34,789 nucleotides of DNA from the IMG/VR virus record IMGVR_UViG_3300025000_000277, positions 1 through 34,789 of that record. The stretch is one strand, 5' to 3'. Position numbers and translations under genes: made by a program. Positions within the stretch are counted from its first letter, which is position 1, and every line of letters begins with the position of its first letter. Shown here one piece after another: positions 2,542 through 19,461 of this stretch. The notes beneath the pieces were generated by a model. That model worked only from the letters and a program-made list of their open reading frames with translations. It was not told where the DNA came from and ran no database searches. This DNA is from a virus.

Positions 2542-2573
2542 AAGCGGGCTAATCAATGAGGTTCGCCCGCTTT
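2542..2573 (+). terminator. hairpin before tRNA-like gene
   Basis: AAGCGGGC (2542-2549) pairs perfectly with GCCCGCTT (2565-2572) around a 15-nt loop and is followed by only a short T run (TTTAT). It could end upstream transcription or act as a processing signal 5 nt before the tRNA-like acceptor stem. Confidence 0.4.
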
Positions 2574-2577
2574 ATCT

Positions 2578-2691
2578 GGGAGAGTTTCCGAGTGATTAAA
2601 GGAATGGGATAAGTGGAGGATGTGCACAGTCTGAACCATTTGCAAATCTCATGCGAAAGCTTCGTGGGTTTGAATCCCACCTTTCCCACCA
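2578..2691 (+). tRNA. class II tRNA-like gene with an enlarged anticodon loop
   Basis: All canonical arms except the anticodon loop can be placed. The acceptor is GGGAGAG (2578-2584) with CTTTCCC (2681-2687), discriminator A, and encoded CCA (2689-2691). The D arm is TTCC/GGAA around GAGTGATTAAA. The anticodon stem is TGGGA (2605-2609) with TCTCA (2647-2651). The 12-nt variable arm (2652-2663) contains GC-GAAA-GC. The T arm is GTGGG, TTTGAAT, CCCAC. Between the anticodon stem halves there are 37 nt instead of 7. Removing 30 nt would leave TTGCAAA, giving anticodon GCA (Cys), although the D and variable arms look more like tRNA-Tyr. The usual GG of the D loop reads GA. It may be an interrupted tRNA, a tRNA-like regulatory RNA or a decayed tRNA. 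Confidence 0.6.
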
Positions 2692-2725
2692 GCCGAAAGG
2701 CTAATAAATTGAAAGGGTGAAGTAA

Positions 2726-2998
2726 ATGAGCAACGAAGTAAAAATTGGGCAACAAGTGTATTTTGTGAATGCAGAGGGAAATGAGCGCCCGGCAATCATC
2801 GTCAATGTTTTCAGCCAGGAATCTGGATGTGCTAACCTTCTGGTGTTTGTTGATGGAAGCAATGACAAAGCAATGACTGTATATGATGGAAAAGGTGATT
2901 GTTATTGTGCGTCCATATGGGCAACGTCCGTAAACAAAGCAGAGCGCTGCGCTACGACAGGGACGTACCCTACAAGGACATGGCATTGGACTGAATAG
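2726..2998 (+). CDS. phage protein of unknown function
   Basis: A protein of 90 residues, starting after GAAAGGGTGAAGTAA. The N-terminal half (VKIGQQVYFVNAEGNERPAIIVNVF) looks like a small beta-barrel of the kind found in phage proteins with a closing TWHWTE motif. The C-terminal half has three cysteines. It is the first gene after the tRNA-like element and probably opens the early operon. The family resemblance is from memory only and the function is unknown. Confidence 0.75.
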   Translation: MSNEVKIGQQVYFVNAEGNERPAIIVNVFSQESGCANLLVFVDGSNDKAMTVYDGKGDCYCASIWATSVNKAERCATTGTYPTRTWHWTE

Positions 2999-15229: not shown

Positions 15230-15274
15230 ATATAGGCAATCTGTGTCACTGTGCTTGTGCTAGGTTGCCTATAT
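15230..15274. repeat. 10-bp perfect inverted repeat at DUF932 gene end
   Basis: ATATAGGCAA (15230-15239) and TTGCCTATAT (15265-15274) are perfect complements around 25 nt. The repeat spans the stop codon of the minus-strand DUF932 gene. Transcripts from the plus-strand promoter at 15177 would form this stem immediately and then meet a few U. It may be a terminator or an antisense-RNA stem. Confidence 0.6.
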
Positions 15275-16124
15275 TTATGCCATTCTTTAATTGTGCCATA
15301 CCCTCTGCAAGTGTCCATAACGCCCGGTTCAGACCAACAAGATTATCGATGGACTGTACCTCTCGGGTAGTTGTGCGATTGCCTGACTGGTTTCTGCCCC
15401 TCATACCACCACGAACGAGGTTCTCTTGGAGCCGGTTGAATGTGACCCATAAACTATCGTCCTGGTCTTCTCTGCGATTGGCCCATAACACTCTGTCAGT
15501 GGATACAGGAGAGAGAATTTTGTTTTCTTCATCCCTGCCAAATCTCAAATCCAGTGCAGCAGATGCAAGTAATTTTTGCTCAGGTCTGGAAAGCTGCAAT
15601 GCCTGCATACTTTCGCGGGAATCGTCCACAATTTCAAACTCGTCAACAATCCGGTATGCGGCCTCTATAACGTCGTTGCGGATATCACCGTTGTGCCTGA
15701 CCCTGTAGTCCTCGACCGTATCACCTGCAATGCATCCATTCTGGCATACAAACCGGAAATACCCTGCAAGCAACTGATAGCTACTCGTACCATCATGAGA
15801 GTTGACAAGTATAATTTCGTTTGCGCCCTCAGAGTTGGCAATGTCGTTTACGTGCCTGAGTCTTAACATGTGCTTGGTGAATTCAGATTTGCCCTCGATG
15901 CGGCTCATTGCCTGTGCTGCGAAAAACGGTACAAATCCCTCTTTTCTCAGTCCATCCAACACGCTAGCAGTGGGTATGTAAGTATACCTGCTGCTGCGAC
16001 TTCCATGCGCTTCTGGTGCAAAAATACTTGGTACTACGTTCATAATCTGTTCGTTGCTCAGCGGTTCCATTGAGCGGATAGAGCGACCATTCTTTCCGAT
16101 TGATGTTGCTAACATTCTTGTCAT
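15246..16124 (-). CDS. DUF932 phage/plasmid protein
   Basis: A protein of 292 residues from ATG 16124, where AGAAGGGAA stands 6 nt upstream; a longer frame to 16190 lacks a site. DUF932 features are seen: TYIPTASVLDGLRKEGFVPF near the start, ANEIILVNSHDGTSSYQLLAGYFRFVCQNGC in the middle, and a C-terminal NRLQENLVRGG with SIDNLVGLNRALWTLAE. The family occurs in phages, plasmids and genomic islands; its role is not established. It belongs to the minus-strand operon read from about 17050. Confidence 0.92.
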   Translation of the reverse strand: MTRMLATSIGKNGRSIRSMEPLSNEQIMNVVPSIFAPEAHGSRSSRYTYIPTASVLDGLRKEGFVPFFAAQAMSRIEGKSEFTKHMLRLRHVNDIANSEGANEIILVNSHDGTSSYQLLAGYFRFVCQNGCIAGDTVEDYRVRHNGDIRNDVIEAAYRIVDEFEIVDDSRESMQALQLSRPEQKLLASAALDLRFGRDEENKILSPVSTDRVLWANRREDQDDSLWVTFNRLQENLVRGGMRGRNQSGNRTTTREVQSIDNLVGLNRALWTLAEGMAQLKNGINIGNLAQAQ

Positions 16125-16220
16125 AGTAAATTCCCTTCTGGAGCGGATTGCGCCCCGCTGAGTGACCTTGGCCATCGTCAGGCACTGCATTACAGTGCGA
16201 CCGGGAAACCCGGTTTCGGC

Positions 16221-16325: not shown

Positions 16326-16354
16326 ATCATCCCATCCTTTCATATTCTTGCTAC

Positions 16355-16410
16355 GTGCAGGAGATTGCCTCCTTTCGTCCTGCACCCGCTTTGGGCCAAA
16401 AGCACTAATT
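16355..16410 (-). promoter_or_regulatory. hairpin cluster between two minus-strand genes
   Basis: GTGCAGGA (16355-16362) and TCCTGCAC (16378-16385) form an 8-bp stem that on the minus strand encloses AAAGGAGG, a strong ribosome-site sequence. TTTGGGC and GCCCAAA nearby (about 16391-16424) make a second stem. It may be a processing or translational control site for the small gene and DUF932. Confidence 0.4.
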
Positions 16411-16434
16411 TAGAGACGCCCAAACGTCTTATTT

Positions 16435-16881
16435 CTATGCCGCCTTTTGTTTAGCGGTCTTTTCAGCCCTTCTGTTGATTTGATAATGTACATACTCAAT
16501 GCTGCTGAAGCGTAAAGAATCGTTATCTTTTTTGAGATATTCAAGGATTATCTTAGATGCTTCATTTGTCGGGAAACTATATTGCCAATTGCGTTTCTGT
16601 TCCCACTTACGAGCGATACGTGCCATGTTAAACAGTTTGCTTGAATCAAGGCTGAGGATTGCTGCGACTTCATCAATCGCGTTTCTGCCGCAGTATTCTT
16701 CTCGGTCCCGTTTGATGTAAGTTTCCTTTTCGCTTTGTGTCCATCTCCAAGACGGTTTTTTACATACCATCTTGTAAGCTTGGTAGGTGTCAAAGTAATT
16801 TCGCACCATCCACAACAGGCGGTCAACGTCAATTTTTACATCTGCATTGCTTTCTTCTTTTCCACATATCCAACACTTCAT
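16435..16881 (-). CDS. hypothetical protein with N-terminal CxxC
   Basis: A protein of 148 residues starting after AGGAGGTTTTATT. It has MKCWICGKEE at the start, an aromatic helical region (LLWMVRNYFDTYQAYKMVC) and a basic tail. It is the first gene of the minus-strand operon whose promoter is near 17053-17082. No family is recognised. Confidence 0.72.
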   Translation of the reverse strand: MKCWICGKEESNADVKIDVDRLLWMVRNYFDTYQAYKMVCKKPSWRWTQSEKETYIKRDREEYCGRNAIDEVAAILSLDSSKLFNMARIARKWEQKRNWQYSFPTNEASKIILEYLKKDNDSLRFSSIEYVHYQINRRAEKTAKQKAA

Positions 16882-18871: not shown

Positions 18872-19417
18872 CTATAAATTAAGATTAATATAAACATTTT
18901 CAATATCGTCCTGGGTAATTCCGATATAGCGTAAAGTGATTGCTGGCGTGCTGTGATTAAATATCTGTTGTAGTAATGTGATGTCAATCCCCTGCTTATA
19001 TGCCCAATAGCCAAATGTTTTCCGCAATGTGTGAGTTCCTACGTTAATGCTAAGCTTTGCCTTTTTAGCCGCATCATTTAATATAGTCCACGCTTGCACC
19101 CTTGTAATTGGCTTATTTTCGCCTTTTCTGCTCCGGAATATATAATTATCATCCTGCATTTTATTGTTGTTCAAATACGCCTTTATAGCTTTGCTTGCTA
19201 CATCATCAAGAGTAACAGTTCTTTGTTTGCCGGTTTTAATCTCTTTTAATTTAATAGATTGGCTTGTAACATCTTTTACTTTCAGTTCCAACAAATCGGA
19301 TATTCTCAGTCCTGTATTGATTCCGAGAGTAAATAACAGCAGATCCCTTTCGTTAGTAAAGCTTCTTTTCATTTTCTCAATCTGCTTTTTATCCTTAATA
19401 GCTCCAACCTCATTCAT
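18872..19417 (-). CDS. tyrosine recombinase, catalytic domain only
   Basis: A protein of 181 residues from ATG 19417, which has GGAGG 7 nt upstream. All catalytic residues are present: Arg38 in TGLRISD, Lys64, His129 and Arg132 in THTLRKTFG, His155 in NHSTPAIT and Tyr164 in RYIG. It lacks the N-terminal core-binding and arm-binding domains of typical phage integrases, so it resembles small XerC/D-like phage recombinases. It may resolve dimers, integrate the phage, or both. Confidence 0.9.
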   Translation of the reverse strand: MNEVGAIKDKKQIEKMKRSFTNERDLLLFTLGINTGLRISDLLELKVKDVTSQSIKLKEIKTGKQRTVTLDDVASKAIKAYLNNNKMQDDNYIFRSRKGENKPITRVQAWTILNDAAKKAKLSINVGTHTLRKTFGYWAYKQGIDITLLQQIFNHSTPAITLRYIGITQDDIENVYINLNL

Positions 19418-19461
19418 TTTGTCACCTCCATTCAATTTAACTCATAAATGATATTATAAGC

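What the first reader, a model, noticed from the sequence alone, without database searches (positions are those of the whole stretch)
2578..2691. tRNA-like gene with about 30 extra bases in the anticodon loop
Acceptor, D, anticodon-stem, variable and T arms plus encoded CCA are all in place, yet the anticodon loop is 37 nt instead of 7. The excised form would have anticodon GCA on a Tyr-like class II body. Bacterial tRNA introns are normally large group I introns; a 30-nt insertion is too small for that. It could be a spliced tRNA, a tRNA mimic or a decoy. The normal conservation of the arms suggests selection.
Basis: partly seen in the sequence, partly recalled or inferred. Interest (0 to 1): 0.68.

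Follow-up and report, generated by a model that had tools for sequence, protein, structure and literature searches.

The report
Phage tRNA-like element, unable to decode
A piece of phage DNA encodes an RNA whose upper half is a well-formed tRNA but whose codon-reading loop is replaced by a long hairpin; related phages carry other crippled tRNAs in the same spot before a gene, which suggests the phage uses the tRNA shape as a cutting or protecting signal in its mRNA rather than for translation.

Summary
Window 2578-2691 (+) folds as a class II tRNA body (7-bp acceptor, D arm, anticodon stem, variable arm, T arm, encoded CCA) with a 37-nt anticodon loop, and the cloverleaf is the minimum-energy fold. 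Standard tRNA finders miss it. It is unlikely to be chance: no element scored as high in five shuffled copies of about 500 kb.

The spliced-tRNA reading is not supported. The insert folds back to lengthen the anticodon stem, matches no known intron family, and no uninterrupted copy was found.

Four other phage contigs carry tRNA-like elements in the same slot, none with a normal decoding form: one Leu-like with an insert of about 100 nt, and three of about 60 nt lacking at least one arm. The slot is: GC hairpin, 5-6-nt AU-rich leader, tRNA-like body, (C)CA, hairpin AGCC-GAAA-GGCT, small ORF. None of 14 contigs has a tRNA above the Rfam cut-off.

Best reading: a tRNA-derived element co-transcribed in a polycistronic mRNA, whose acceptor, T arm and elbow serve as an RNase P processing site and 5' cap. 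Function is inferred, not shown. A decaying tRNA gene remains the main rival.

The parts
2542..2572 (+). GC-rich hairpin AAGCGGGC...GCCCGCTT just upstream; would be the 3' end barrier of the upstream message after RNase P cleavage
   Evidence: Folds at -17.3 kcal/mol; the same kind of hairpin is at the same distance in G008 and G009
2573..2577 (+). 5-nt leader TATCT between hairpin and tRNA-like body; A at -4 and U at -1
   Evidence: Leader is 5 nt in window, G008, G009 and 6 nt in G012; A(-4) and U(-1) in all four
2578..2691 (+). tRNA-like element, class II body, 37-nt anticodon loop, encoded CCA
2610..2646 (+). Enlarged anticodon loop; 2611-2616 pairs with 2636-2641 to lengthen the stem, GCA at 2642-2644 lies in a bulge
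   Evidence: Minimum-energy and centroid fold
2664..2691 (+). T arm, 3' acceptor strand, discriminator A and CCA: the part kept in all slot elements (CCA reads ACA-A in G005 and G008)
2691..2702 (+). Hairpin AGCC-GAAA-GGCT that begins at the A of CCA
   Evidence: Identical in eight related contigs, five of them with a tRNA-like before it
2726..2998 (+). Small ORF (90 aa, no family match) whose mRNA would begin with the tRNA-like element

Best explanation
A tRNA-derived element that no longer decodes, co-transcribed inside a phage polycistronic mRNA and kept for its top half. Inferred steps: the nascent mRNA folds the tRNA-like body; host RNase P clamps the elbow and T-stem/acceptor stack and cuts between 2577 and 2578. 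This leaves the upstream message ending in a 31-nt hairpin plus a 5-nt tail, and the downstream message starting with a folded tRNA-like cap and a second hairpin at the CCA, which would shield both new ends from decay and uncouple expression of the two genes. The anticodon arm is then under no decoding constraint, so it could be lengthened here and remodelled or lost in relatives. Shown: the structure, the shared slot, the loss of normal decoding form in every slot copy, the same-strand gene context. Not shown: transcription, cleavage, or any effect on expression.
For: Acceptor and T arm fully paired and better than shuffles. Five phage contigs have a tRNA-like in the same slot, with a hairpin 5-6 nt upstream in four of them and the hairpin AGCCGAAAGGCT directly after (C)CA in all five. 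The middles differ freely (missing arm, 30-nt and about 100-nt inserts) while acceptor and T arm stay paired, with one weak pair in G009. No contig of 14 has a tRNA over the Rfam cut-off, so these phages are not simply carrying decoding tRNAs (ARAGORN). U56 in the T loop, where 73 of 73 real tRNAs have C, is matched by A19, so the elbow pair could still form. Genes on both sides are on the same strand, with no promoter match. [quoted passage not shown] it measures along the T-stem/acceptor stack from the elbow (PMC4810234).
Against: No RNA data. Three relatives have the two hairpins without any tRNA-like, so the element is dispensable. The window copy has no close homologue, so selection on its own sequence cannot be tested. 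Fold z-scores for the window and G009 copies are weak (-1.5 and -0.3). The A(-4)/U(-1) match and the A19/U56 pair rest on very few cases. G008 and G009 have an imperfect acceptor.
Confidence: 0.45

Rival explanations
1. Decaying tRNA genes: the phages captured tRNA genes at a recombination junction and the copies are degenerating; the window copy gained a 30-nt insertion and does nothing.
For: tRNA-likes are present or absent and differ in kind between close relatives at the same place; the shared 3' flank precedes different small ORFs, as at a module junction; isotype bodies differ (Tyr/Ser, Leu, Ser, Asn/Arg).
Against: All stems of the window copy are intact; the G005 mini element has 7 of 7 and 5 of 5 pairs and z = -4.1 although an arm is gone; no intact tRNA exists in any of 14 contigs, where decay in progress would leave some.
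Confidence: 0.28
2. Stable tRNA mimic acting in trans: released from the mRNA, it titrates a host factor, for example a tRNA-cleaving defence nuclease, RNase P, the CCA enzyme or a synthetase.
For: Encoded CCA, a Tyr/Ser-like body and a strongly altered anticodon arm; phage tRNA-Tyr is known to counter a retron that degrades host tRNA-Tyr (PMC11555353).
Against: In that published case an ordinary tRNA supplies the lost function, not a mimic; slot elements in relatives derive from other isotypes or lack arms, so no common target; no own promoter match.
Confidence: 0.13
3. Integration (attP) site carrying host tRNA sequence.
For: Related phages carry tRNA 3' ends that look like attP: G011 (Leu), G008 and G009 (Pro); the window has a tyrosine recombinase.
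Against: Those sites are elsewhere in the genomes, apart from this slot; the window recombinase (18872-19435) is 16 kb away; the element has both tRNA halves plus an insert, not only a 3' end.
Confidence: 0.05
4. Working tRNA whose 30-nt insert is removed by splicing, giving anticodon GCA on a Tyr-like body.
For: Flanks are good tRNA halves and a 7-nt loop TTGCAAA could be drawn; the G012 copy also has an insert in the anticodon region and ARAGORN reads it as a tRNA with an intron.
Against: No bulge-helix-bulge and no intron family in Rfam; bacteria are not known to remove 30-nt tRNA introns; GCA (Cys) would disagree with the Tyr/Ser body; slot relatives lack arms and could not decode either.
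Confidence: 0.04

Closest known systems
Non-tRNA substrates of bacterial RNase P: phage P1/P7 C4 antisense RNA, phage M3 RNA, his operon mRNA, acceptor/T-arm model hairpins (PMC11143913)
   Same: tRNA-like top half in a phage or mRNA context; cleavage expected 5' of the acceptor stem
   Different: Here the body is recognisably derived from a whole tRNA with CCA and sits in an intergenic slot shared by several phages; cleavage not shown
tRNA punctuation of mitochondrial transcripts and D-armless mitochondrial tRNAs (from own knowledge; D-armless tRNAs in PMC7609411)
   Same: tRNA shapes between genes as cutting signals; an arm may be missing
   Different: Mitochondrial tRNAs decode; these lack a normal anticodon loop
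Phage-encoded tRNA genes, including those that counter anticodon nucleases (PMC11555353)
   Same: tRNA bodies in a phage genome
   Different: Those decode; none here passes tRNA models
MALAT1 mascRNA (from own knowledge)
   Same: tRNA-like without decoding role, cut out by RNase P
   Different: Eukaryotic, at a 3' end, and RNase Z dependent

Membership tests
Canonical bacterial tRNA gene | 7-nt anticodon loop with U33 and a readable anticodon | tested here: not met
   Loop is 37 nt and partly paired
Canonical bacterial tRNA gene | Score over the tRNA model cut-off | tested here: not met
   16.9 bits against 29; ARAGORN none
Canonical bacterial tRNA gene | Acceptor, D, T arms and CCA | tested here: met
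Intron-containing tRNA | Known intron type (group I core, or bulge-helix-bulge) | tested here: not met
   No Rfam intron hit; fold shows an asymmetric 1/5-nt bulge, not two 3-nt bulges
Intron-containing tRNA | Homologue without the insert | tested here: not met
   None found among relatives or by pattern scans
RNase P substrate | Stacked acceptor and T stem with T loop, RCCA at 3' end, unpaired leader | tested here: met
   7 + 5 bp, ACCA, 5-nt leader between structured parts
RNase P substrate | Cleavage 5' of the acceptor stem | not testable with these tools
   Needs enzyme assay
Phage attachment site | tRNA 3' end next to the integrase gene | tested here: not met
   Recombinase 16 kb away; relatives' attP-like sites lie elsewhere

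The most novel reading that the evidence does not exclude
An uncultured phage clade uses interchangeable, non-decoding tRNA-derived cassettes as punctuation in its mRNAs: host RNase P cuts at them and the tRNA-like body caps the downstream message. Freed from decoding, these cassettes take on shapes (lost arms, 30-100-nt anticodon-arm inserts, altered elbow pairs) not seen in working bacterial tRNAs.
Probability: 0.3. Interest if true: 0.72.

Novelty: new variant of a known kind. Interest (0 to 1): 0.5.

Why it matters
If true, phages would have a tRNA punctuation system like that of mitochondria, built from former tRNAs and invisible to standard tRNA annotation programs. It would also give natural bacterial RNase P substrates freed from decoding, which separates what RNase P needs from what the ribosome needs. 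Even if they are only relics, the set shows that tRNA finders miss a class of phage tRNA-derived genes.

Tried and rejected
Close homologues of the element in annotated phages: none. Exact patterns for its 5' part and its T arm in viral contigs: none. Relatives of the downstream ORF: none. Prophages: a terminase scan of genome contigs and a portal-protein search of 398 genomes of one phylum found none, so the host is unknown. Two bacterial tRNA-Met spacers share CCACCAGCCGAAAGGCTAA, but the number of matches in that collection is about what chance gives, so they were not used. Group I intron in the G012 insert: no Rfam match. Relaxed ARAGORN gives too many other hits to be evidence. A C19-G56 inversion in the G005 Asn-like element (T loop TTGGAAT) is possible, but its D-loop register is uncertain, so it is not counted. 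The palindrome in the end loop (possible kissing dimer) has a chance of roughly 5-20% and was left aside.

Full report
What is there. The window is an IMG/VR phage record of 34,789 bases; a 20-kb query found no close relative among 50,697 annotated phages. At 2578-2691 (+) lies a sequence that folds as a class II tRNA: acceptor GGGAGAG/CUUUCCC, UU, D arm UCC-GAGUGAUUAAA-GGA, anticodon stem UGGGA/UCUCA, variable arm UGCGAAAGCUUC, T arm GUGGG-UUUGAAU-CCCAC, A73 and CCA. The cloverleaf is the minimum-energy fold. The anticodon loop is 37 nt. Within it AAGUGG pairs with CCAUUU, so the arm becomes a long bulged stem with a 19-nt end region, and the would-be anticodon GCA lies in a bulge.

Is it more than chance. 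Energy alone is not convincing (z = -1.5). Two other tests are better. A scan for a paired 7-bp acceptor plus T arm found six placements at score 13 or more in 503 kb of this and related phages, the window element among them, and none in five shuffled sets. Not all six are credible: one is a second register of the G012 element and one, in G011, shows no other tRNA feature. Aligned to 89 real bacterial tRNAs, the element scores 66 with tRNA-Tyr and 65 with tRNA-Ser, against a maximum of 31 for 30 shuffled copies. It descends from a class II tRNA.

Relatives. The terminase led to seven viral contigs. The closest, G005 (IMGVR_UViG_3300025000_000284, terminase 80% identical), has at the same site a short element: GGGGAAG UAGC GGACC-UCAUGUU-GGUCC CUUA GUGAG-UGCAAUU-CUCAC CUUCCCC ACA, a tRNA shape without a D arm (z = -4.1). 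Its middle hairpin loop lacks U33. An HNH ORF sits between it and the upstream hairpin. The shared 3' flank (C)CA-AGCCGAAAGGCUAAUAAAUU was used as a probe. It gave G008 and G009, with an element of the same 5' and 3' ends and a different middle, and G012, with a tRNA-Leu-like body interrupted by about 100 nt, which ARAGORN calls only when introns are allowed. In G010, G011 and G013 the two hairpins are joined directly, without a tRNA-like.

The slot. In the window, G008 and G009 a GC-rich hairpin ends 5 nt before the first acceptor base, and in G012 6 nt before; the leader has A at -4 and U at -1 in all four. The 3' hairpin AGCC-GAAA-GGCU starts at or next to the last A of (C)CA in all five, and leads into the start of a small ORF that differs between phages. 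In the window the genes on both sides are on the same strand and no promoter match was found in the region, so co-transcription is likely but not shown.

Two further tRNA-like elements in G005, one Asn/Arg-like just upstream of a ribosome-binding site (L006 12654-12735) and one Ser-like with a remodelled anticodon region (L006 13817-13926), are absent at the corresponding places of the window. No contig of the 14 has a tRNA over the Rfam cut-off; the tRNA 3' ends found in G008, G009 and G011 look like attachment sites.

What it does. The slot copies keep acceptor and T arm and differ, or are damaged, in the parts that only decoding needs. The window copy has U56 in the T loop, where 73 of 73 real tRNAs have C, and A19 in the D loop, so the elbow pair could still form; this is one case and only suggestive. 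[quoted passage not shown] it clamps the elbow and measures along the T-stem/acceptor stack (PMC4810234); it contacts the leader, with a preference reported at -4 (PMC11143913). I therefore favour a processing site and 5' cap in the phage mRNA (0.45). The main rival is a set of decaying tRNA genes at a recombination junction (0.28), which the variable presence would also fit. A trans-acting mimic (0.13), an attachment site (0.05) and a spliced tRNA (0.04) are less likely.

Limits. The window element has no homologue close enough to test selection on its own sequence; five slot elements are few, and two of them (G008, G009) are near copies; the host is unknown; nothing was measured at the RNA level.

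Noticed in passing
window 16349-16429 (-): Pistol self-cleaving ribozyme, 41 bits over a cut-off of 34.5, between a DUF932 gene (15246-16190) and the ORF 16435-16881, all on the minus strand.
   Followed up: no
window 2621-2628: Palindrome TGTGCACA in the end loop of the extended anticodon arm could let two RNAs pair loop to loop; the chance of such a palindrome is not small.
   Followed up: no
G005, L015 2955-3485 (-): HNH endonuclease-like ORF lies between the upstream hairpin and the mini tRNA-like and overlaps the 5' part of the latter.
   Followed up: partly
L006 12654-12735 and L006 13817-13926 (+): Two further non-canonical tRNA-like elements in G005, one Asn(GUU)-like with 2 extra nt between acceptor and T stem, one Ser-like; both absent from the window at the corresponding places.
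   Followed up: partly
L024 2475-2544 (-), contig IMGVR_UViG_3300021256_000166: Another tRNA-like below detection in a distant phage, with a 4-bp anticodon stem and loop TTAAAAT.
   Followed up: no
L043, L044, L045 (middle of each locus): tRNA 3' ends (Leu, Pro, Pro) followed by hairpins with T runs in G011, G008 and G009, probably attP sites; they hint that these phages are temperate.
   Followed up: no
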